Below are positions 8,571 through 25,377 of a stretch of 64,000 nt of DNA, piece after piece (position 1 is the first letter of the stretch; every line of letters begins with the position of its first letter). Made by a program: the position numbers and the translations under genes. This DNA comes from Bradyrhizobium prioriisuperbiae. GTDB taxonomy: Bacteria > Pseudomonadota > Alphaproteobacteria > Rhizobiales > Xanthobacteraceae. Under the pieces are notes generated by a model. That model saw nothing but the letters and a program-made list of their open reading frames with translations, made no database searches and was not told where the DNA came from. The stretch is taken from contig NZ_CP135921.1 in the NCBI RefSeq assembly GCF_032397745.1, positions 6,498,501 to 6,562,500 of the forward strand. The letters are read 5' to 3'.

Positions 8571-9737
8571 TCACTCCTGATCAATGAATCGACCGTGTTT
8601 CACCAATGCGGGGATCACGATATTGTCGGCATAGCCGCAGCCTGTCGATAAGATCGGCTTCTGGCCGCCTTTCTTGGCCTCCTCCGGAGCGTGACCTTCC
8701 CCGGCATCGAGGCGAACTAACATAGGTGCGTAACCTGGCTCCCATGCTCGCGCGGAAGGGAAGATGGTTCGCAAGCTCGAAAGGATTGCCATGCCGGTAT
8801 GATCGAGATCGCCCCAGAAGGCCGCGCAGACATCGATGTTACTGTGGAATGCGGCATCGAAGGCCCGTATCTCACTTGCATTCGAGACAGTGTCCAGAGA
8901 ATAGAACGTCCTGCATCCGGATGGTTTTCGCATCCGTCCGGCCGTTCCCATGAAGCCGCTAGAGTAGATCAGAGCAGCGCCCGCGTATGGCGAGAATCGT
9001 CCATGCAGGAGCGCCTCTCTGGCGTCGCGGATGGCCCGCTCGAATGATGTCTTGTTCTCGACAAAGAGAATCCAGGAAAAAGGCCCCACAAAATAGACGT
9101 TTAGGTGGATCGGTTGCGCCGGGTAAGGGCACTCCGCCAATCCAAGCAGAGCAGCTACTAGGTCGGACCGGTTGTCGAGAACCTTCGATAGTCCCCAGAA
9201 CGTCCGGCTAGATACCTCACGCAGATATAGGGTTTCCCGGTGATCATAAAGGGCGCGGATTGAGATCAAACGACTGAAGACCTCGGTGGCGGATCGTCCA
9301 GGGATGGAGACCGGAACATCCAAGATAGCCGCCTTGATGTCGCTATCGAGGTCGCTCGAACGGACCAGGCAGCGCCATTCCTCTGAATATTTCAGGCCTG
9401 GCCGCGGGCGGTCGTAGAAAGCGCGAAGGCGATTCTCGTTGGCCAGGGCGGTCGAGATTTCGAATGCCGGCTGGCGGTTTTCGCGCGAGCCGTGGCGAGC
9501 CGCCCGGCGATAGGCGAGGGTTCCAATGCCAGCGTCGACGAGCACTTCAAGCACGTGCCATGCAATCTCGCGGTCGGCGTTGGTCTCTGCCTTGAATATC
9601 TCTGGCGCCGTATTCTGGTCGATTGGGATTCTGATCGCGTTCGTTCGGCCCTCCGGAAGTAATCTATCCAGCCGATCGAGCGCGTTCCCGAGAATGCGCT
9701 TCGCGAGCGGATCGCTGAGGGCGGTCTCGGGAGTCAT
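8571..9737 (-). CDS. jetD: Wadjet system nuclease subunit JetD
   Basis: 388 residues with the Toprim-type C-terminal domain of JetD (DUF2220-like). FVENKTSFE (Glu227) supplies the acidic metal ligand. FWGDLDHTG (Asp310, Asp312) is the D-x-D motif, and the chain ends in FIDQE. The N-terminal ~200 residues form the arm region seen in the family. In characterised Wadjet complexes JetD is the endonuclease that cleaves circular DNA after it is sensed by JetABC loop extrusion. The start codon overlaps the jetC stop (ATGA at 9734-9737), so it is translationally coupled. All expected acidic residues are present, so the nuclease should be active. Confidence 0.92.
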   Translation of the reverse strand: MTPETALSDPLAKRILGNALDRLDRLLPEGRTNAIRIPIDQNTAPEIFKAETNADREIAWHVLEVLVDAGIGTLAYRRAARHGSRENRQPAFEISTALANENRLRAFYDRPRPGLKYSEEWRCLVRSSDLDSDIKAAILDVPVSIPGRSATEVFSRLISIRALYDHRETLYLREVSSRTFWGLSKVLDNRSDLVAALLGLAECPYPAQPIHLNVYFVGPFSWILFVENKTSFERAIRDAREALLHGRFSPYAGAALIYSSGFMGTAGRMRKPSGCRTFYSLDTVSNASEIRAFDAAFHSNIDVCAAFWGDLDHTGMAILSSLRTIFPSARAWEPGYAPMLVRLDAGEGHAPEEAKKGGQKPILSTGCGYADNIVIPALVKHGRFIDQE

Positions 9738-12700
9738 TCTGCCGCTACGCCTACGTCTGTCTTGAATGGATTCGCGAGTTCGAACTTCGCCTTCACATCC
9801 CGGACCGTGTTACGACGGTGCTCTTCGTAGATTTCTGAGATCCGCTGTTGTTCAAGATCGACCTCGTCGATCCAAGTCTGCGATCCAGCCGTCGGCGCCT
9901 TTGAGAAGCTGATGCGCCGATTGAATACGTCCATCAGGGCTGCCATCGACTTGGTCGGCGCGGCGCAAACGAGCTGGAAACCCATTTCCTTGGTCAAGAA
10001 ATCGATGACGCGTCGGGTCCTGCTCTCGTCCATGTTCTTGAAGACCTCGTCCAGGAACAACGTGCGGAAATGCGAGATCTTCTGTTTCGAGAACAGTTTG
10101 AAACTCGCCGCGAAAACGGCGGCGCGGATGATGTAAAACGGCGTCTCGGCCTCTCCACCGGATCCCGTTCCCCACGTCGACAAGCCGCGCGGATCTCCGC
10201 CTTTCGAGGACTTCTCGAAATCGTATTTTTTGTAGTTCCGGTAGTCCGCGATCCGGTTGAGCTCCCGCATCGAATGTTCGATGTCATTCGACAAGAGAAG
10301 CAATCGGAGGGCTTCGAGCGTCGCCTTCTCCGCGGGGGCTAAGTCTGCCGCCGAGAATAGATCGGCCGGTCCGGCTTCGGTGCGTTCCCGCACGGCCCGG
10401 AATAGATCGAGATACTGACTGTACTCTTCGCGCAATGACTGCGTCATGAGGATCTTGTCGCCGGAGAAGCTGATGTCCTCCAGGCTTTTGTTGACGACGT
10501 CGATAGTTCGGTCCGGCCCCGTCACCCTCTGCAGGATGCGCAGACAGAAGTTTGAAGTGAACGATCTGGTGAATTGCTGTTCCGCCAGCACCAGCTTTTC
10601 GCGCTGCTCGACTAGGCCGGTATCCCGCTGGCGCCTTATTTGGTCGGCCACCTGCTCGAACTGGGACCGAAGCCACTCCGTCATGAGCTCGGGGGATGGC
10701 GAGGGGGAGGGATACTGAAGAGTGTGGGCTGCGATCTTCTGGTATTCGAGCGCTTCGCGATTGTAGTCGCGAAGCGTGTTTTCGGCGGCGTTCTTGGCGT
10801 CCTGCGCCCACGACCGCCGCTCGATGTTGCGGTCGTGGAACGACTTCACCGGCCGTCCCGATTCGATCTCCTGCCGGTACTGAGTTTCGTAGGGCATCAG
10901 TCTGATCGGCGGAACGCAGGAAAGCGCGTTCCTCCAGTTTTTTTCGGCGCGTTCGGCGTCGGGAGTTAGCTTGCTGATCTGAAGGTTTTCGTCGGTCGCT
11001 TTTTCATCGGCGATCCGGATATCACGGTTGAGTTCGCCGACTTTGGGAAGCAGATCATTCTTGCGCTCAGTGAACTCGGAGATCTTCCTTTTGGCTTCAG
11101 CAGCCTGCTGCTCTAGATCCGCAATGCTGGATACGTCGAGGCTTTCAAGTTCTTGAGTCGCAGCGTTGAGTTCCTTCCCTGCCGACTGGAATGACCCAAC
11201 GTCCAAGTCCTGCAGTTCGGCTTGCTTCGCTCGGCCCATCAGGGTGATGGCATTCCTGACGTTCTGTTCGCTGGTCGCCTTGCTTGTGATTTCCTTGCTG
11301 ATCTGCTCGATCGCAAGGGTGAGAATTTCGGCCTGACGGCGACGAACTTCGATGCCGAACACCAGCCCCTCGTCGGGCTCCGATCTGTTCCGGTAGTTGT
11401 ATCCCGCCACCGAGACACCGTCCTGCAGCAATCCGCTGCGGACGTCCTTCAACGCGTCCTCGGTCGCGACACAGACGCTCCGGCCGTAACGCGCGGTCAG
11501 GTAACCGAGCGCGACCCGGTCATCGCTCCTGAGCTTGCCGACTAACGAGTCCGGTACGGCCGTGCCCGCATCCCTGAGGGCCCGGCCTATCTGAGCCACC
11601 GAGGGGCGGGCGCCGCTGGCGTCGCGGTAGGAACGCAGCAGCGCGATGACCCGAGTCTCATACTCCGGTTCGTAGAGGATGGCGAATCTGTCGCCGCCGA
11701 TGAAGCCTTCCACCGCGTTTTGCCATGAAGGATCTTTCATCTCGACCACGTCGCAGAGTATGCGTGGCTTCGCCTCGGGCAGGACCCGTGCTAGGTGCGC
11801 GACAAACTCCGATACGCCGCGCGGATAGTTCGTCCGGCCGGACGCCAGCGCCTGACGCTTGGTCTCGCTGTCGCTGCGTTTCATTCTCAGCAAGTCCAGG
11901 TGTTGGCGCAACTTGTCGTGGGCGAAGAGGAACGTTTCGGCGACGGAGTCGACTTCAATGGTCCAGCCTGAACCGACGGCAGCGTCGATCGCGACGATAG
12001 CCTCCTGGAGGCTGGCAGCGGCACCGCCGTCGAGTCCATCCCTTACAGCGCGGAAGTGTGCTTCGATTTTAGGCAGGTCAATCCCGTCGATCTTCTCTCC
12101 GACCGCGGAAAGCCGTATCGCAGCGTCGCGCAGGTCGTCGATGCCTGAGCAGGCGGATATTGATTGCCGGATCACGTTCCGGGCGGCGCTCAGCGTGAGG
12201 GTGGCGCTCCGCAGCTTCTGTTCGAAGCTTCGGATCGTGTCGCTGCTCCGCGCGATCCGATCCTGGATGCCTAGTCGGATGCGATGAACGTCACTGTCGT
12301 TGATGCGTGACTTCAGCCTATCCCAGGCGTCGTTGTGGAATACCGTCTGGACGTCGCAGTCGACGATTTCTTTGTTGATCTCGCCAAGAGCGGCGGTGGC
12401 CCTCTCTTTCGCCTCGAGAGCTTCGTTGCGGCGGTTAACAGCATCCTGCAGCAGCCTAGCGGCTTCGAGTGCCGCAAACATCCACTCCTCGATGAAATGT
12501 TTCGCGCCCTCGGTGAGAAATCCGTTAGCCTCCTCCAGCAGCCGAACGTTGTTCTCCATCCGCTCGGCTTGTTGTCGCAGGTTCGAGACGTCGGTAATCG
12601 TGGTCTTAAGGGTTTCGATCATCCTGGCGTTGTCGTCGGGCTCCAGGATATCTTCTCGGATAAGCGCATCGATGTCGTCGGGCTGCCGATAGGCGATCGA

Positions 12701-13357
12701 GTTGACGAAGGCGCGCATGCAGCCTTCCGCCTCGCGCCGGTCTACCGGCGAGGATTGTCCCTTGAGGGTCGCGTAAAGACGACAGACGTATTCGGTCTTC
12801 GTGCTGTAGTCGCGCACGGAATCCCTGCCGAACTTCTTGCGAAGCGCGACAAGAAGCTCGTTGACTGGAATGACCTCCTCGGCACCGTCGACGATCCTGA
12901 TCAGGTCGGCCGCGCCGACCTTGGCGCCAAAGGCGATGATCCGGACGTCTTCCAGCGATTTGAAGACGGGCTGGTTCGCCAGCTTTTCGAGTCGCGCTTC
13001 CGTGCCCACGATGGCGGTGAACGGCTGGCCTGCTCCGTCGTCCCTCTCGTCCGGCTCGAAATAGAGGCCGGCATAGCCGTGGGCGCCGTGCTGGCGGTGC
13101 GGCTCGGCGCTGTCGTCGGCGCCAAGGACGTAGGACGCGATCGTTCGCTTCGTCTTTTTGCTCGACGAAGTCTCGCTCTGGGCCGAGTTATATTTGGCGA
13201 ACCGCAACTCGTTTCCCGTCATCACACTGATCACAGCATCGATGAACGAGGACTTTCCAGCGCCCGTTTCACCGCCGAGCAATACAATCTCGGCAAGTTG
13301 CACGTCGCCGATCGGGAGCTGGCCCCAGTTGACGGTCGTCACCTCCTTCATGATCAT
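9734..13357 (-). CDS. jetC: Wadjet SMC-like ATPase JetC (MukB/MksB-like)
   Basis: 1207 residues. The Walker A motif GETGAGKS is at 29-36, near the N-terminus. Long charged, heptad-like regions around 270-440 and 650-1000 fit an SMC coiled-coil arm, with a hinge-like globular part between (about 470-640). Near the C-terminus are the ABC signature GTGSGGE (about 1063-1069) and Walker B TLFLDEVF (about 1099-1106), followed by a D-loop-like segment. Family knowledge: JetC is the ATP-driven motor that extrudes DNA loops and, with JetA/B/D, recognises small circular plasmids. The start ATG overlaps the jetB stop by 4 bases; a second ATG two codons on is possible. The chain is complete, with no frameshift. 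Confidence 0.93.
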   Translation of the reverse strand: MIMKEVTTVNWGQLPIGDVQLAEIVLLGGETGAGKSSFIDAVISVMTGNELRFAKYNSAQSETSSSKKTKRTIASYVLGADDSAEPHRQHGAHGYAGLYFEPDERDDGAGQPFTAIVGTEARLEKLANQPVFKSLEDVRIIAFGAKVGAADLIRIVDGAEEVIPVNELLVALRKKFGRDSVRDYSTKTEYVCRLYATLKGQSSPVDRREAEGCMRAFVNSIAYRQPDDIDALIREDILEPDDNARMIETLKTTITDVSNLRQQAERMENNVRLLEEANGFLTEGAKHFIEEWMFAALEAARLLQDAVNRRNEALEAKERATAALGEINKEIVDCDVQTVFHNDAWDRLKSRINDSDVHRIRLGIQDRIARSSDTIRSFEQKLRSATLTLSAARNVIRQSISACSGIDDLRDAAIRLSAVGEKIDGIDLPKIEAHFRAVRDGLDGGAAASLQEAIVAIDAAVGSGWTIEVDSVAETFLFAHDKLRQHLDLLRMKRSDSETKRQALASGRTNYPRGVSEFVAHLARVLPEAKPRILCDVVEMKDPSWQNAVEGFIGGDRFAILYEPEYETRVIALLRSYRDASGARPSVAQIGRALRDAGTAVPDSLVGKLRSDDRVALGYLTARYGRSVCVATEDALKDVRSGLLQDGVSVAGYNYRNRSEPDEGLVFGIEVRRRQAEILTLAIEQISKEITSKATSEQNVRNAITLMGRAKQAELQDLDVGSFQSAGKELNAATQELESLDVSSIADLEQQAAEAKRKISEFTERKNDLLPKVGELNRDIRIADEKATDENLQISKLTPDAERAEKNWRNALSCVPPIRLMPYETQYRQEIESGRPVKSFHDRNIERRSWAQDAKNAAENTLRDYNREALEYQKIAAHTLQYPSPSPSPELMTEWLRSQFEQVADQIRRQRDTGLVEQREKLVLAEQQFTRSFTSNFCLRILQRVTGPDRTIDVVNKSLEDISFSGDKILMTQSLREEYSQYLDLFRAVRERTEAGPADLFSAADLAPAEKATLEALRLLLLSNDIEHSMRELNRIADYRNYKKYDFEKSSKGGDPRGLSTWGTGSGGEAETPFYIIRAAVFAASFKLFSKQKISHFRTLFLDEVFKNMDESRTRRVIDFLTKEMGFQLVCAAPTKSMAALMDVFNRRISFSKAPTAGSQTWIDEVDLEQQRISEIYEEHRRNTVRDVKAKFELANPFKTDVGVAAE

Positions 13358-14059: not shown

Positions 14060-15493
14060 TCAAGCCCTCTGCGAGATCTTATGGTCGACGGTGCGAAATG
14101 CGCCATTAGAACGGCATTCGTCCCCCACCGAGACCGTCAGGCCGATCTCCGGACCGAGGCTCCGGACGATCTCGACGGCGGACATTGCTGCAAGCAGTTG
14201 GCGGGCATCGCCGACAGGCAGTTGCGTCACTGAGGTCGATCCGCCATTGGCCAGCACGGCGGCGTGGACGCGGCTGACCACCTCCTTGGCTGGCACTGCA
14301 AAGGCTGCGGTCATGGCGTTGCGGATGTCCGCCGCTAGCATTTCCTCCCGCGAGCGCTGCTTGCGGACGATCACGGTCGGTGTCCGTGCCCGGTCGGCGC
14401 GGTCTGCTATCTTGAGGTCGGCTGGATCGATCAGATCTGCGCGTAACGGGAATAGGTGGTGGAGCATCTCGCGGCAAATTTCGTCGCGCTCCTCGTCACC
14501 GGCCGCCGCGAACAAGCCGGCGAATCTGATCAGCGGATCGTCATTGCCGACGGCGCTCAGCTTGATCAGTCTGCCGATCAGGATCGCGTAGTTGGTCGAA
14601 AATTCGCCCACGACCCGATGGAGCTCTTCGTGTTTGATGTCCCGGGTCGACTCGACAACCCTGCGGATCCTCGCCAGCATCCAGGTGTGCAGCCGCTCGC
14701 CGTTGGCTTCCTCCTCTAGCGCCGGGTGCTCGTCCATCATCTTTCTGTCTGCCGCTTCCAGCACCGCGGGATTCATCGCCGCTATGCTTTCGGTTAGATC
14801 GACGATGTCAGAGGCGTGATTGTATATGTTATCGCTGTCGAAGTAGCGCGAGGCACGCTTGTCGAAATCGTTCACGCCAAGCATGTATCCGACGAGGGCC
14901 TCCTTCGAGGTCGAGAAGGAGTGCCCCATGATGCGGCGCTGGTGCTCGGTAAAGAGGTCGGAAACCTGGCAGACGTCGTCGAAGATGGTCGAGGCGTACT
15001 CGTAAGCGTCGACCAGATATTCGTGGTTGCCTTCTTCGGAGAAGGCCTTTAGCGCCCCCTTGCAAGCGCGCACGCTGCGTTGGCGCGCAACTGATGTCTT
15101 GCGCCTGGTATCCGCGAACATCTTGGCGATCCGCTTGCCCTCCGGCGTGAAGCGCCAGAGTACCTTGAGGTAGGCGGAGTCGTTGTATTCCTCGATTACG
15201 CCAAAGCGCTTCAGGCGCTTACGCACCTTGTCGGCGTAGTCGCGATCGTCACCGGCGCAATCGAGCTCCTCGTCGCCTTCTTCGCCGGAAAAGATCAAAG
15301 ACCGGTTCTTATCCAGCGCGTCCACTATGATTTCTGTCAGCGCGAGCCGGTCCAGTACGATCTCATAATCGGCATTCACCCCAAGCGTGCGTTCGTAGAT
15401 TTCTGTAACCACCTCGAAAAACACGGCGCGATGCCTGCCGGTAAACGGCCGGAATATGTCAACGCGTGCCTTAGATAGGAAGTGATCTTGCAT
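14060..15493 (-). CDS. jetA: Wadjet kleisin subunit JetA (MksF-like)
   Basis: 477 residues from ATG 15493; the frame reaches 15553, but this ATG has an AAGAG site and starts the recognisable N-terminus MQDHFLSKARVDIFRPF. FFEVVTEIYERTLG and the following winged-helix-like segment (YLKVLWRFTPEGKRIAKMF) resemble the JetA/MksF kleisin N-terminal domain. The remainder is helical and charged. The N-terminal pattern looks closer to Wadjet type II (DUF5716-like) than to type I (DUF3375). That subtype call is from memory and moderate. The operon order jetA-jetB-jetC-jetD is canonical. A putative LexA-regulated promoter lies 264 bp upstream of the ATG. Confidence 0.85.
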   Translation of the reverse strand: MQDHFLSKARVDIFRPFTGRHRAVFFEVVTEIYERTLGVNADYEIVLDRLALTEIIVDALDKNRSLIFSGEEGDEELDCAGDDRDYADKVRKRLKRFGVIEEYNDSAYLKVLWRFTPEGKRIAKMFADTRRKTSVARQRSVRACKGALKAFSEEGNHEYLVDAYEYASTIFDDVCQVSDLFTEHQRRIMGHSFSTSKEALVGYMLGVNDFDKRASRYFDSDNIYNHASDIVDLTESIAAMNPAVLEAADRKMMDEHPALEEEANGERLHTWMLARIRRVVESTRDIKHEELHRVVGEFSTNYAILIGRLIKLSAVGNDDPLIRFAGLFAAAGDEERDEICREMLHHLFPLRADLIDPADLKIADRADRARTPTVIVRKQRSREEMLAADIRNAMTAAFAVPAKEVVSRVHAAVLANGGSTSVTQLPVGDARQLLAAMSAVEIVRSLGPEIGLTVSVGDECRSNGAFRTVDHKISQRA

Positions 15494-15756
15494 GGAAACT
15501 CTTAGTAGCCACAGCGAAAATACACAACGCGAAGGTGCAATCCTATGCTTCAAGCTCGGCTGAGACTAGACCGAACCCAGCTATCCATTGGGACGAAGAA
15601 ATGCTGAGTTCAAAATGAGAGACAGCATCGGAAGGGCCGATCGGTAGAAGGCTGGCGGGCCTCATCGCCCTCCACGCGTAAGGCGCGCCGTTCGGCCGAC
15701 CGCACCGGTTAGCTGCCGCTACGGCTGGGAATCTCAAGCCAGCTCATGCGCGCATC
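15494..15756 (-). other. Long leader between the Wadjet promoter and jetA
   Basis: About 260 bases without a recognisable gene. On the minus strand a very short frame (MSWLEIPSRSGS, ATG at 15747) begins almost at the predicted transcription start. A 64-codon TTG-started frame runs 15737-15543 with no known family features. GC-rich inverted segments (around 15690-15720) could fold in RNA. It may be an untranslated leader, a leader peptide region, or remnant sequence. Nothing here is supported strongly enough to call a gene. Confidence 0.4.
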
Positions 15757-15785
15757 ACAATAGAACAAAATAAGAACACTGTCAA
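15757..15785 (-). promoter_or_regulatory. Predicted sigma70 promoter of the Wadjet operon
   Basis: Read on the minus strand: -35 TTGACA (complement of 15780-15785), a 17-base spacer (15763-15779), then -10 TATTGT (complement of 15757-15762). The -35 is a perfect consensus and the -10 matches 4 of 6. Transcription would start near 15750 and run into jetA at 15493 with no other convincing gene between. The spacer is occupied by a LexA-type box. This is sequence inference, with no expression data. Confidence 0.65.
15763..15777. promoter_or_regulatory. Alphaproteobacterial LexA (SOS) box in the Wadjet promoter
   Basis: GAACAAAATAAGAAC is an exact GAAC-N7-GAAC direct repeat (GTTC-N7-GTTC on the minus strand), the established LexA operator consensus of alphaproteobacteria. 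It lies wholly between the -35 and -10 of the promoter facing jetA. That is where bound LexA would block RNA polymerase. Chance occurrence of an 8-base fixed pattern somewhere in 64 kb is expected once or so, but chance placement exactly in a good promoter spacer is much less likely. No SOS gene such as imuA is visible beside it. Confidence 0.65.
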
Positions 15786-15940
15786 ACAAGCCGCCATTAT
15801 TGGACGGGGAATTTCGGAAGCGAACCTTCTTCACAGCACGCAAGTTGCGATCCACACACTAGGGCCCGTCCTCAATTAGAGGATTCCCCGGCAGATTATC
15901 GCGTGATTCATAGGCAGTCAGCTGATTCGGGAGCTGACAG

Positions 15941-16698
15941 ATGCGCCGCTACGCCCTTCGGGACGATCAATGGGACAGGATCGAGGAGTTTTTACCCGGC
16001 CGCAAAGGGCACGTTGGGGTCACCGCCAAGGACAATCGGCTGTTTGTCGAGGCGGTGCTGTACCGTTATCGCGCCGGGATTCCCTGGCGGGATTTGCCGG
16101 AGCGCTTTGGCGATCCGATCAAGGTTCACACGAGGTTTTCACGCTGGGCCAAGAGCGGTGTGTGGAAGAAGTTGTTTGAGATGCTGGCGAGCGATGCCGA
16201 CAATGAGTACGCGATGATCGACAGCACAATCGTGCGGGCGCATCAGCACAGTGCCGGGGCGCAAAAAAAGCGGGCGAAGACGAGGCGCTCGGGCGCAGCA
16301 AAGGCGGGTTAAGCACCAAGATTCATGCGCTCGTCGATGCGCTGGGCAATCCGCTAGGGTTCAAACTTACGCCCGGCCAGGCCCATGATTTGCAAGGCGC
16401 CGATGCTCTGCTGCCGGACATGGCGGCCAATACCTTGCTGGCAGACAAGGCCTACGATGCCGACCAGCGGGTGATCGAACCGTTACTCGCCCGGGCAAAA
16501 TCGGTCGTGATCCCGCCAAGAGGCCACCGCCAAATCCAGCGCGACTTCGATAAAGACGCCTACAAGGCGCGCCATCTCATCGAGAACTTCTTCTGCAAAC
16601 TCAAGCAGTATCGCGCCATCGCAACCCGCTACGATAAAACTGCGAGAAATTTCCTTGCCGCAATCCACCTCGCCGCTGCTATCATTTGGCTCAATTGA
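15941..16698 (+). CDS. IS5-family DDE transposase made by programmed -1 frameshift
   Basis: The first frame (15941-16312, 123 residues, MRRYALRDDQWDRIEEFLPG) holds the N-terminal helix-turn-helix region and the first catalytic Asp (AMIDSTIV). The second frame continues with GGLSTKIHALVDALGNP, the second Asp (LLADKAYDAD) and the catalytic Glu (HLIENFFCKLKQYR), ending at 16698. Slippage at 16264-16270 joins them into about 252 residues, the normal length for the family. Without slippage only a truncated, inactive 123-residue protein is made, which commonly limits transposition. No other lesions are seen. Confidence 0.9.
16264..16270 (+). other. Slippery heptamer A_AAA_AAG for -1 frameshifting
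   Basis: Seven A followed by G gives the classic X-XXY-YYZ arrangement in the phase of the first transposase frame (codons CAA AAA AAG). Moving back one base puts the ribosome exactly in the frame of the second half. This is a known control point in IS5-group and IS3 elements. Confidence 0.85.
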
Positions 16699-16781
16699 GG
16701 ACAGGCCCTAGTCCAACTGCCCGAATGGCCAGCCTGATCATCAACGGCAAAAGCGGGACTCAGATGTACGGCATTAAAAAC

Positions 16782-16809
16782 AAGAAGCCCGCCATTTGGC
16801 GGGCTTCTT
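16782..16809. terminator. Bidirectional hairpin terminator at the nrdJ 3' end
   Basis: A perfect 12-bp stem AAGAAGCCCGCC / GGCGGGCTTCTT with loop ATTT. On the minus strand it is followed by TTGTTTTTAA, a T-run fitting termination of nrdJ, which ends 49 bases before it at 16859. On the plus strand the run is weaker. Part of the right arm (CGGGCTTCTTCAGTTTT) is repeated immediately after, at about 16817-16833. Confidence 0.8.
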
Positions 16810-16858
16810 CAGTTTTCGGGCTTCTTCAGTTTTACTGACCGAGCGCTAGATCATCCGC

Positions 16859-19800
16859 TCACGAGCACCCGGTCGTGCTGCCGCACGTATCGCACTTCAT
16901 GCACGTGCCGTTCCGCACCAGCGTGAAGTTGCCGCACTCGCCGCACATCTCGCCCTCATAGCCCTTGGCCTTGGCTTCCGCCCGGCGTTCGGCCTTTGAC
17001 GGAGCAAGCTGCGCCGCCGTGCCGGCCTTGCTCCAAGCTTGCGCTTCCAGCCGTTCGGTCGGCGACAAATCGGCCTCGACCTCGGCCTTCAGCGCGGTGG
17101 CGCCTTCGAACTGGGAGGAGACGTCGCTGCCATGACGCGCGGTGGCACCGGCAGAGGCGATCGAGGTGACATTGCCGGAGGCGCGGGTTTCGGGTTCATG
17201 CGCGCCGCCCTGCATCACCACCAGTTTGTCGGTGCGCGAGCGGGTCAGGCCCTTCGACAGGTACTTGTTGGCGGGCGCGGGTTCCGGCGACTTGCCTTCT
17301 TCCACACCCTTGCCGAGTGCATCGAAGTTCGACTCGGTCGGATCGACATGGGCGAGGTCGAACCGCGACATGTAGCTGACAGCGAGTTCGCGGAACACAT
17401 AGTCGAGAATCGAGGTCGCATACTTGATGGAGTCGTTGCCCTGCACTGGCCCTGCGGGTTCGAAGCGGGTGAAGGTGAAGGCGTCGACATACTCCTCCAG
17501 CGGCACGCCGTATTGCAGGCCCAGCGACACCGCGATGGCGAAGTTGTTGATGAAGGAGCGCAGCGCCGCGCCTTCCTTGTGCATGTCGATGAAGATCTCG
17601 CCGATGCGGCCGTCGTCGTATTCGCCGGTGCGCAGGTAGACCTTGTGGCCGCCGACCACCGCCTTCTGGGTGTAACCCTTGCGGCGATCCGGCATCTTCT
17701 CGCGCTCGCGCATCACCACGATGCGCTCGACCAGCTTCTCGACGATCTTTTCCGACACCTGGACGGCACGGGCGGCCATCGGCTTTTCCATCAGAGACTC
17801 GATGGCATCCTCTTCCTCGTCGTCGTCGGAGATGAGCTGCGAGTTCAGCGGCTGCGACAGCTTGGAGCCGTCGCGATAGAGCGCGTTGGCCTTCAGCGCC
17901 AGTTTCCACGACAACAGGTAAGCGGACTTGCAGTCATCCACCGTGGCGTCGTTCGGCATGTTGATGGTCTTGGAGATCGCACCCGAGATAAAGGGCTGCG
18001 AGGCCGCCATCATGCGGATGTGGCTTTCCACCGACAGATAACGCTTGCCGATCTTGCCGCAGGGATTGGCGCAGTCGAACACCGCATAGTGCTCGGCCTT
18101 CAGATGCGGCGCACCTTCCACGGTCATGGCGCCGCAGACATGGATGTTGGCGGCCTCGATCTCGCGCTTGGTGAAACCGATCGAGGCCAGCAGGTCGAAG
18201 GTCGGGGCGGCGAGGGCCTCGGCGCTGACGCCGAGTGTCTCGCGGATGAAGTCTTCACCCAGCGTCCACTTGTTGAAGGCGAACTTGATGTCGAACGCCG
18301 TCGGCAACGCCTTCTCGATCTTGGCGATCGCCTCGTCGGTGAAGCCCTTGGCCTTCAGCGTCGAATGATTGACGCCGGGCGATTGCGCCAGCGAGCCGTG
18401 GCCGACCGCATAGACCTCGATCTCGGCGATCTCGCTTTCACGATACCCCAGCCGGCGCAAGGCCGCGGGCACCGCCTGGTTGATGATCTTCCAGTAGCCG
18501 CCGCCGGCGAGCTTCTTGAACTTCACCAGCGCGAAATCAGGCTCGATGCCGGTGGTGTCGCAATCCATGACGAGGCCGATGGTGCCGGTCGGCGCCACCA
18601 CCGTGGTCTGGGCGTTGCGGAAGCCGTGGGTTTCGCCTGATGACAGCGCCAGATCCCAGGCCGCGATGACGTGGGTGACGAGGTCGGGCTGCGGGCAGCT
18701 GGCGTGGTCGAGCGGCACCGGATTGACGGCGAGCGCTTCGTAACCAGCCGCATTGCCATGGGCGGCGCGGCGGTGATTGCGGATCACCCGCAGCATATGG
18801 CTGGCGTTCTTCTTGTAGGACGGGAAGGTGCCGAGCTCCTTGGCCATCTCCGCCGAGGTCGCATACGCCACACCGGTCATGATCGCAGTCAGGGCGCCGC
18901 ACAGCGCGCGGCCTTCCTTGGAGTCGTAAGGCAGGCCCATGTTCATCAAAAGGCCGCCGATGTTGGCGTAGCCGAGGCCCAGGGTGCGGAATTCAAACGA
19001 GAGTTCAGCAATCGCCTTGGACGGGAACTGGGCCATCATCACCGAGATTTCGAGCACGACGGTCCACAGACGGCACAGGTGCTCATAGGCCTCGACATCG
19101 AAACGGCGGGTCTCGACATCGTAGAAGGTGATCAGGTTGGCGGAGGCCAGATTGCAGGCGGTGTCGTCGAGGAACATGTATTCGGAGCAGGGGTTGCTCG
19201 CGCGGATGTCGCCGGACGACTTGCAGGTGTGCCAGTCGTTCATGGTGGTGTTGAAGTGAAGGCCGGGATCGGCGCTGGCCCAGGCGGCATAGCCGATCTT
19301 TTCCCAGAGGTCGCGTGCTCTGAGGGTCTTCACCACCTTCTTGTTGGTGCGGCCGATCAGGTTCCAGTCGCTGTCGGTCTCGACCGCGCGCAGGAAGTCG
19401 TCCTTCAGCGAGACCGAGTTGTTCGAGTTCTGGCCGGATACCGTGAGATAGGCTTCCGAATCCCAGTCGGTGTCATAGGTGTCGAACTGGATGTCGGTGT
19501 AACCCTGCCTGGCGAACTGGATGACACGCTTGATGACGTTGTCGTTCACCAGGGCACGGCGTGCCAGCTTGATCTCACGGCGCAGCGCCGGGTTCTTTTC
19601 GGCATCGAAGCAATCGTCGCCGGATCCCTCGCAATTGACACAGGCCTTCAGGATCGCCTTGAGGTGCTTCTGGTTGATCTTGGAGCCGGTGACCAGCGCC
19701 GCGACCTTCTGCTCCTCTTTCACCTTCCATTCGATGTAGGTCTCGATATCCGGATGGTCGGCGTCGACGACAACCATCTTGGCCGCGCGGCGCGTGGTGC

Positions 19801-20614
19801 CGCCGGACTTGATCGCGCCCGCCGCGCGGTCGCCGATCTTGAGGAAGCTCATCAGGCCGGACGAGCGGCCGCCACCCGACAGCTTCTCGCCTTCGCCGCG
19901 CAGTCGCGAGAAGTTCGAGCCGGTGCCGGAGCCATATTTGAACAGGCGCGCTTCACGCACCCACAGGTCCATGATGCCGCCCTCGTTGACGAGGTCGTCA
20001 TCGACGCCCTGGATGAAGCAGGCATGCGGTTGCGGATGCTCGTAGGCCGATTTCGACTTGGTCAGCTTGCCGGTCTTCCAGTCCACATAGAAGTGGCCCT
20101 GGCCCGGGCCATCGATGCCATAGGCCCAGTGCAAGCCGGTGTTGAACCACTGCGGCGAGTTCGGCGCGACCATCTGCTTGGCCAGCATGAAGCGCAGCTC
20201 GTCATAGAACGCGCGGGCGTCGTCCTCGGAGGAATAATAGCCGCCCTTCCAGCCCCAGTAGGTCCAGCAGCCGGCGAGGCGATCGAACACCTGCTTGGAG
20301 GAGAGCTCGCTGCCGAAGCGCTCGGCCTCGGGGAGGTTGGCCATTGCGTCAGTGTCGGGCACCGAGCGCCACAGCCACGACGGCACGGTCTCTTCCTCGA
20401 CCTTCTTGAGAACCTTGGCGACGCCGGCCTTGCGGAAATACTTCTGGGCGAGAACGTCTGAGGCGACCTGGGACCAGACCTGCGGCACCTCGACATTCTC
20501 GAGCCGGAACACCACCGACCCGTCGGGATTGCGAATCTCGCTGGTCGTCAACCGGAATTGAATGTCCGCGTAGGGGGACTGGCCGTCCTTGGTGTAGCGC
20601 CGATCGATCCGCAT
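16859..20614 (-). CDS. nrdJ: Vitamin B12-dependent (class II) ribonucleoside-diphosphate reductase
   Basis: 1251 residues, the long alphaproteobacterial form. The core carries the class II/I active-site signatures [20 protein letters not shown] and GQNSNNSVS. Near the end are radical/thiyl-site and redox-Cys segments. The C-terminus has a zinc-ribbon-like Cys cluster ([10 protein letters not shown] and [13 protein letters not shown]) that rereduces the active site in this subtype. It converts ribonucleotides to deoxyribonucleotides using adenosylcobalamin and works with or without oxygen. The start ATG at 20614 begins [12 protein letters not shown]. It is monocistronic, closed by a strong terminator. 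No ATP-cone is obvious at the N-terminus. Confidence 0.96.
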
Positions 20615-24957: not shown

Positions 24958-25377
24958 ATGGGAAAATCACCGGCAAGATCCTGGACCGAAAAATTCGAGA
25001 GCTCGAAGCCGCACGAAGTGAAGCCGGTTCCGATCAACATCGCCGGCATGAAGAAGGGCGAGATCATGCTGGTGCCGTCGCCGCGGATCGTCGCCGATTT
25101 CATTGCGCGAATTCCGGCCGGCGAGAGCATGGACGTGAGAACCCTGCGCGAACGGCTGGCGCGCCGATACAAGGCCGAGGTGACTTGTCCGATCACCACC
25201 GGCTTTCATCTGCGCACGGTGGCGGAGGCCGCGCTCGAAGCCAGGAGCAGGGGTGCAGCGCTCACGGAGATCACGCCGTTCTGGCGCGTGCTGGACGAGC
25301 ACGCGCCGACCACGGAGAAACTTTCCTGCGGCACAGCCTTCGTAAAAAAGCTGCGCCGGCGGGAAGGCCTGCGTTAG
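24958..25377 (+). CDS. MGMT-family-like small protein lacking the PCHR active site
   Basis: 139 residues, basic N-terminus. It resembles the group of short proteins annotated as MGMT family or methylguanine-methyltransferase-like: IPAGESMDVRTLRERLARRY and CPITTGFHLRTVAEAALE, then ITPFWRVLDE. In true methyltransferases the acceptor motif is PCHR. Here the corresponding place reads TCPITTG (Cys77), so alkyl transfer is doubtful and a DNA-binding role like alkyltransferase-like proteins is possible. It is tightly coupled to the upstream AraC/GyrI regulator. The family call is by eye and moderate. Confidence 0.65.
   Translation: MGKSPARSWTEKFESSKPHEVKPVPINIAGMKKGEIMLVPSPRIVADFIARIPAGESMDVRTLRERLARRYKAEVTCPITTGFHLRTVAEAALEARSRGAALTEITPFWRVLDEHAPTTEKLSCGTAFVKKLRRREGLR

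What the first reader, a model, noticed from the sequence alone, without database searches (positions are those of the whole stretch)
15757..15785. LexA box inside the promoter driving the Wadjet operon: SOS-controlled Wadjet?
TTGACA, a 17-base spacer and TATTGT face jetA, and the spacer contains an exact alphaproteobacterial LexA operator, GAAC-N7-GAAC, from 15763 to 15777. No other gene lies between this promoter and jetA. This would place an SMC-type DNA-cutting defence under DNA-damage control, a coupling I do not know to be described for Wadjet. Induction could link plasmid entry, which produces single-stranded DNA, to defence.
Basis: inference. Interest (0 to 1): 0.88.

Follow-up and report, generated by a model that had tools for sequence, protein, structure and literature searches.

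The report
SOS repressor site controlling Wadjet defence
The promoter of a plasmid-cutting bacterial defence operon carries what looks like a strong binding site for the DNA-damage repressor LexA, and several relatives carry such a site before the same gene, so this defence is probably switched on by DNA damage; no experiment has tested this yet.

Summary
GAACAAAATAAGAAC lies at 15763-15777 inside the spacer of a 10-of-12 sigma-70 match facing a complete type I Wadjet operon, jetABCD. The bare motif GAAC-N7-GAAC is at chance level (3 in the window, 2.34 expected). This copy stands out: GAACAAAA[C/T]AAGAAC occurs at 7 places in 9.08 Mb, and a matrix from six SOS-gene boxes gives it 23.5 bits, next in the window 14.1. 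Four of those six boxes were found with a pattern like this site; a matrix from recA and lexA alone does not single it out. Conservation is the stronger support: exact boxes lie within 400 bp upstream of jetA in 5 of 10 alphaproteobacterial loci, this one included, in three species at exactly -56 in otherwise divergent DNA. No shuffle of nine upstreams reaches three (0 of 4000). Five loci lack it. I conclude that LexA represses this operon and SOS induces it (0.84). The complete listings for Wadjet with LexA or SOS response show no such report. Binding, induction and benefit are untested.

The parts
15763..15777 (.). Predicted LexA operator GAACAAAATAAGAAC (GTTCTTATTTTGTTC on the jet strand)
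   Evidence: Exact match; 23.5 bits with the six-gene matrix, next in window 14.1 (partly circular); same 15-mer at two other places in the genome
15780..15785 (-). -35 hexamer TTGACA
15757..15762 (-). -10 hexamer TATTGT, directly next to the box
15494..15756 (-). about 260-nt leader; no small ORF recognised as shared with the L051 leader
   Evidence: Frames of window and L051 leaders printed and compared by eye; alignment; transcript extent inferred
14060..15493 (-). jetA, 477 aa, start ATG at 15493
   Evidence: PADLOC JetA1 1.6e-69; 10 of the 11 relatives of 80% identity or more are 477 aa
13354..14106 (-). jetB ORF (real start may be about 14058, next to the jetA stop, as in the 234-aa L051 copy; inference)
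   Evidence: PADLOC JetB1 7.9e-38
9734..13357 (-). jetC, SMC-like ATPase, 1207 aa
   Evidence: PADLOC JetC1 3.7e-237; AAA_29 and SbcC_Walker_B
8571..9737 (-). jetD, predicted nuclease subunit, 388 aa
   Evidence: PADLOC JetD1 2.1e-96
15863..16707 (+). IS4/IS5-family insertion with CTAG on both sides (15859-15862, 16708-16711), upstream of the promoter and outside it
   Evidence: Inverted repeats, transposase domains, ends read by eye
16782..16809 (-). terminator-like stem after the class II ribonucleotide reductase gene (nrdJ, 16859-20614), which would separate it from the jet transcript
   Evidence: 12-pair stem with T tail (two such sites found where shuffles give 2.1); domains of the gene

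Best explanation
The operon jetABCD is a member of the LexA (SOS) regulon. In undamaged cells LexA sits on 15763-15777, between the -35 and -10 hexamers, and blocks RNA polymerase. When single-stranded DNA forms RecA filaments, LexA cleaves itself and the operon is transcribed, so the plasmid-cutting complex is made or raised during DNA damage or replication trouble. Shown here: the site, its place in the promoter, its likeness to boxes of the genome's SOS genes, the intact operon, a cleavable-type LexA, and recurrence of a box upstream of jetA in relatives. Inferred: binding, repression, induction and any benefit. The likeliest benefit is to keep a DNA-cutting machine low in healthy cells and to raise it when foreign or excised circular DNA replicates.
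For: Promoter geometry: box inside the 17-base spacer, next to the -10. Seven GAACAAAA[C/T]AAGAAC sites in 9.08 Mb with differing flanks. Among the 21 places are sites before uvrA and comM (L046, L032), dinB (L040) and between SRAP genes (L047); recA and lexA, found without that pattern, have GAAC-N7-GAAC boxes too. Six-gene matrix 23.5 bits against 14.1 for the next site in 64 kb. Two Caulobacter SOS genes share the published box GTTCttgttatGTTC (PMC12700426, passages), close to GTTCttattttGTTC here. LexA encoded with Ala-Gly, Ser and Lys in the usual motifs (motif meaning recalled). Relatives: L051 (G095, JetA 96%) has a box at -294 with 13 of 15 letters kept, both changes inside N7, while upstream of the -35 only 29 of 76 columns agree. 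G280, G894 and G286 have the box at exactly -56 from the ATG (printed as -59, counted there from the end of the ATG) in otherwise divergent DNA. Chance: 0 of 4000 shuffles of nine upstreams give three or more; P about 1.2e-6 for 4 of 9 without the window, about 5e-5 for 3 of 8 without L051 as well.
Against: No binding or expression data. Five of the ten loci lack an exact box within 400 bp (G346, G880, Methylopila, Mesorhizobium; G504). A matrix from recA and lexA alone does not single the site out (third in the window at 11.96 bits, or outside the top four), and four of the six boxes of the better matrix were found with a pattern resembling this site. Of the 21 places the backwards control suggests that about 10 are chance; some lie by genes with no known SOS link, such as an MMPL transporter (L034) and an outer-membrane protein (L045). 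The G286 and G280 boxes score 12.3 and 16.9 bits with the six-gene matrix (G894 22.2), though recA, lexA and comM score 16.8, 14.0 and 14.9 when left out of their own matrix. Against L051, other 25-column stretches of the leader are as conserved as the box stretch, 17 to 18 of 25. The leader is long, so another promoter nearer jetA is possible, though none was found. Six betaproteobacterial plasmid copies show no E. coli-type box near jetA. The 400-bp limit was chosen after seeing the -294 site.
Confidence: 0.84

Rival explanations
1. Chance match: a GAAC-N7-GAAC site that happens to lie in an AT-rich promoter, with no LexA function.
For: The bare motif is at chance level in window and genome; half of the ten loci lack it; a recA-lexA matrix does not single the site out.
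Against: Near-identical 15-mers recur in the genome at 7 places; recurrence upstream of jetA and fixed position in three species.
Confidence: 0.08
2. The box is real but belonged to another SOS gene, and the jet operon was dropped behind its promoter.
For: The operon lies beside an IS element, and the DNA upstream of the -35 does not match that of L051 (29 of 76 columns).
Against: The box lies between promoter hexamers facing jetA with no ORF of 100 aa or more between; L051 also has it before jetA; it sits at -56 of jetA in three other species. No imuA-type gene was named among the 9 window ORFs scanned.
Confidence: 0.04
3. LexA binds here, but a second, LexA-independent promoter in the leader gives most jet expression, so SOS control is slight.
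For: Long leader of about 260 nt; the 61 columns before the ATG are well conserved with L051, 51 of 61; several loci do without the box.
Against: No promoter-like site found in the leader, but the scan covers only a sigma-70 consensus; in three relatives the box lies at -56, leaving little room for another promoter.
Confidence: 0.15

Closest known systems
Alphaproteobacterial SOS regulon (GTTCN7GTTC = GAACN7GAAC boxes; Caulobacter, PMC12700426, passages read)
   Same: Same operator type; presumably the same kind of repressor action (recalled)
   Different: Known members are mainly repair, mutagenesis and division genes (recalled); no Wadjet operon among them in the listings and passages seen
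Type I Wadjet (JetABCD)
   Same: All four genes, order and adjacency; PADLOC type I models match
   Different: A LexA-boxed promoter; [quoted passage not shown]
CapK/CapS DNA-damage control of immune operons (PMC13373217, abstract and outline)
   Same: Defence operon switched on by DNA damage through ssDNA
   Different: There a dedicated local kinase-repressor pair; here the cell's global LexA
BrxR-family WYL regulators of defence islands (PMC9122601, passages)
   Same: Regulator of defence loci, co-localised with Wadjet among other systems
   Different: Local regulator encoded near the defence genes; no ORF of 100 aa or more lies between promoter and jetA here
RecN, an SMC-like protein under LexA in E. 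coli (recalled)
   Same: SMC-like protein induced by SOS
   Different: RecN repairs breaks; Wadjet cuts circular DNA (both recalled)

Membership tests
Alphaproteobacterial LexA regulon | GAAC-N7-GAAC operator overlapping the promoter | tested here: met
Alphaproteobacterial LexA regulon | Operator fits a matrix of the genome's own SOS genes better than other sites | tested here: inconclusive
   Met with six genes, of which four boxes were found by a pattern like this site; not met with recA and lexA alone
Alphaproteobacterial LexA regulon | Genome encodes RecA and a cleavable-type LexA | tested here: met
   (motif meaning recalled)
Alphaproteobacterial LexA regulon | Operator recurs upstream of orthologues beyond chance | tested here: met
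   5 of 10 loci, 4 of 9 without the window; 5 lack it
Alphaproteobacterial LexA regulon | LexA binds, and transcription rises with DNA damage in a LexA-dependent way | not testable with these tools
   needs bench work
Type I Wadjet | jetA, jetB, jetC, jetD adjacent, same strand, matching type I models | tested here: met
Type I Wadjet | JetC with both ATPase parts | tested here: met
   AAA_29 and SbcC_Walker_B both above cut-off; single residues not checked
Type I Wadjet | JetD catalytic residues intact | not tested
   full-length ORF and profile match; no solved chain matched by sequence
Type I Wadjet | Restriction of plasmids by cutting circular DNA | not testable with these tools
   needs transformation or conjugation assay
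CapK/CapS or BrxR-type local control | Regulator gene encoded immediately upstream of the defence operon | tested here: not met
   No ORF of 100 aa or more lies wholly between 15553 and the IS frame at 15903; beyond the IS is a ribonucleotide reductase gene

The most novel reading that the evidence does not exclude
SOS control is a selected, recurrent feature of type I Wadjet in this family of alphaproteobacteria: Wadjet is part of the DNA-damage response and is made at the moment when SOS also releases or amplifies circular mobile elements (excised ICEs, prophages, entering plasmids), so that it destroys circles just as they form.
Probability: 0.33. Interest if true: 0.82.

Novelty: new variant of a known kind. 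Interest (0 to 1): 0.66.

Why it matters
In the papers seen, little is said on how Wadjet expression is controlled; a LexA site in the promoter gives a ready experimental handle. If right, DNA damage and conjugation would raise plasmid restriction, which bears on gene exchange in soil bacteria and on how SOS, usually seen as a promoter of gene transfer (recalled), can also police it.

Tried and rejected
Rejected as evidence: bare motif counts (at chance). The other GAAC-N7-GAAC sites of the window, at 25139 and 30276, are not among the twelve best matrix sites. Betaproteobacterial plasmid copies (six of seven hits fetched) were scanned for an E. coli-type box, a pattern recalled: the only site with at most one mismatch lies at -1097 in L056. 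A viral-contig scan for JetA found no relative. JetD and JetC matched no solved chain at E 0.001, so catalytic residues were not checked. 397 genomes of G504's family gave no match with A1, G504 itself included, so that empty answer shows nothing. G504 is only a partial profile match, positions 4-140 at E 9.5e-5. The shuffle test used nine upstreams, without G504. The site rates of Mesorhizobium and G504 were assumed; the others were measured.

Full report
Observation. On the minus strand it is TTGACA, a 17-base spacer, then TATTGT; the spacer holds GTTCTTATTTTGTTC, that is GAACAAAATAAGAAC on the plus strand at 15763-15777. The promoter scan of 15400-16900 scores it 10 of 12; the one other match, 9 of 12, is on the plus strand inside the IS element; shuffles give 0.7 such sites.

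The operon. jetA, jetB, jetC and jetD lie in order on the minus strand with overlapping or adjacent frames, and PADLOC type I Wadjet models match all four, best E-values 1.6e-69, 7.9e-38, 3.7e-237 and 2.1e-96. JetC has both ATPase parts above Pfam cut-off. I take the ATG at 15493 as the jetA start: 10 of the 11 relatives of 80% identity or more are 477 aa, and L051 keeps this ATG. The box begins 284 bases before it. Between promoter and jetA there is no ORF of 100 aa or more, and by eye no small frame shared with the L051 leader. Upstream lie an IS4/IS5-family element (15863-16707, flanked by CTAG) and a class II ribonucleotide reductase gene with a terminator-like stem; the insertion leaves 77 bases between itself and the -35.

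More than chance? The bare pattern is not: 3 in the window against 2.34 in shuffles, 224 in the genome against 197 for the backwards control. GAACANNNNNAGAAC has 21 places against 10 for the control, so about half of the 21 may be chance. Seven read GAACAAAA[C/T]AAGAAC, including this one, with differing flanks. Boxes of the general type stand before recA and lexA, found by looking upstream of these genes; and, among the 21 places, before uvrA and comM (L046, L032) and dinB (L040) and between two SRAP genes (L047). Others of the 21 lie by genes with no known SOS link, such as L034 and L045.

The matrix. From the six genes above it gives 23.5 bits here and 14.1 for the next site in 64 kb. This is partly circular, because four of the six boxes came from a pattern like the jet site. 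From recA and lexA alone the jet box is third in the window, 11.96 bits against 12.31 for the best, and with their two imperfect boxes added it is not in the top four. Two or four sites make a poor matrix, but this result does not support the claim. What does support it is the recurrence of near-identical 15-mers in the genome and the published Caulobacter box GTTCttgttatGTTC, shared by two SOS genes there (PMC12700426, passages).

LexA. One lexA (TIGR00498 over its cut-off) and one recA are encoded; the LexA has the Ala-Gly, Ser and Lys motifs of a self-cleaving repressor (motif meaning recalled).

Relatives. JetA of this kind is rare. Counting the window's own genome where it was searched: 6 of 391 genomes of the family, one of them a fragment; 2 of 397 of the order; 5 of 265 of genus g25, one a fragment and two already seen; 2 of 385 of the class with the PADLOC model. 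The search of 397 genomes of G504's family gave nothing, but did not find G504 itself either. The genome-contig scan gave four loci, three of which duplicate the above. Ten distinct loci could be compared. Exact boxes within 400 bp of jetA stand in G000 (-284), G095/L051 (-294), and G286, G280 and G894, all three at -56 (one search prints -59, counted from the end of the ATG). None stands in G346, G880, Methylopila or Mesorhizobium, nor in the very divergent G504.

Is that chance? Each genome has about 0.01 sites per 400 bp (assumed for two of ten). Four of nine without the window has P about 1.2e-6; three of eight without L051 as well, about 5e-5. In 4000 dinucleotide shuffles of nine upstreams none reached three. 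The backwards pattern occurs once in these nine upstreams, in G280 at about -394. The species are related and the 400-bp limit was set after seeing -294, so these numbers are guides.

Context of the boxes. Against L051, whose jet region is 91% identical over 6.7 kb, the DNA upstream of the -35 has 29 of 76 columns identical, the leader 111 of 221, the last 61 columns before the ATG 51, and the box 13 of 15 with both changes inside N7. The box is better kept than the stretches on either side of it, but other 25-column stretches of the leader reach 17 or 18 of 25 too. G280, G894 and G286 share little upstream except TGTTCT-NN-AA-N-GTTC at one spacing. G880 shares the last bases of G280's leader but not the box, and blastn finds no match between window and G346 more than five bases upstream of the ATG, so the box can be lost. 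PADLOC, run on four of the nine other loci, finds jetB and jetC (or its start, where the locus ends) in L051, L054, L071 and L069, and jetD in L054 and, in part, near the contig end of L051.

How it most likely works. LexA bound between -35 and -10 blocks the promoter; RecA-ssDNA triggers LexA self-cleavage and frees it. That is established SOS logic (recalled) applied to this anatomy. What the cell gains is inference: a cutter of circular DNA kept low until replication trouble, conjugative entry or excision of mobile elements. Absence of the box in half of the loci argues that such control is not needed for the system to persist.

What is known. The held library has 5.39 million PMC papers. 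The complete listing for Wadjet with LexA has one paper; its main text shows Wadjet once, in a list of systems near BrxR, and LexA not at all. The complete listing for Wadjet with SOS response has two papers, each with Wadjet once; I saw only the listing. Broader searches list only part of their hits (complete with 8; 25 of 2,595; 20 of 44; 15 of 1,656; 15 of 38; 15 of 38) and no listed title or abstract start reports SOS control of Wadjet; one listed paper, PMC6579920, holds Wadjet, JetA, mitomycin and promoter and was not opened. Papers on DNA-damage control of other immune operons by local regulators exist (PMC13373217, abstract and outline). So the parts are known and the coupling appears new within what was searched.

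Noticed in passing
L047:1501-1515: One LexA-type box (GAACAAAAAGAGAAC) lies between two divergent frames with SRAP domains.
   Followed up: no
L049:1501-1515: Box GAACAAAACAAGAAC at the start of a PA0069-family radical SAM gene, a possible SOS member of unknown role.
   Followed up: no
L031, L036, L038, L041, boxes at 1501-1515: Exact GAACAAAA[C/T]AAGAAC boxes beside small ORFs without any NCBIfam match; candidate unnamed SOS genes.
   Followed up: no
L050:1321-1353 and L055:1354-1379: recA and lexA each have one full box plus an adjacent or overlapping imperfect one.
   Followed up: no
window:15863-16707: IS4/IS5-family element with two transposase frames, CTAG on both sides, inserted between the ribonucleotide reductase gene and the jet promoter.
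   Followed up: partly
L051:11137-14761: jetC of this metagenome-assembled genome reads as two overlapping frames; assembly error or broken gene, left as it is.
   Followed up: no
L070:1300-1500: G880 shares the end of G280's jetA leader but has no box: a natural case without the site, useful as a comparison.
   Followed up: partly
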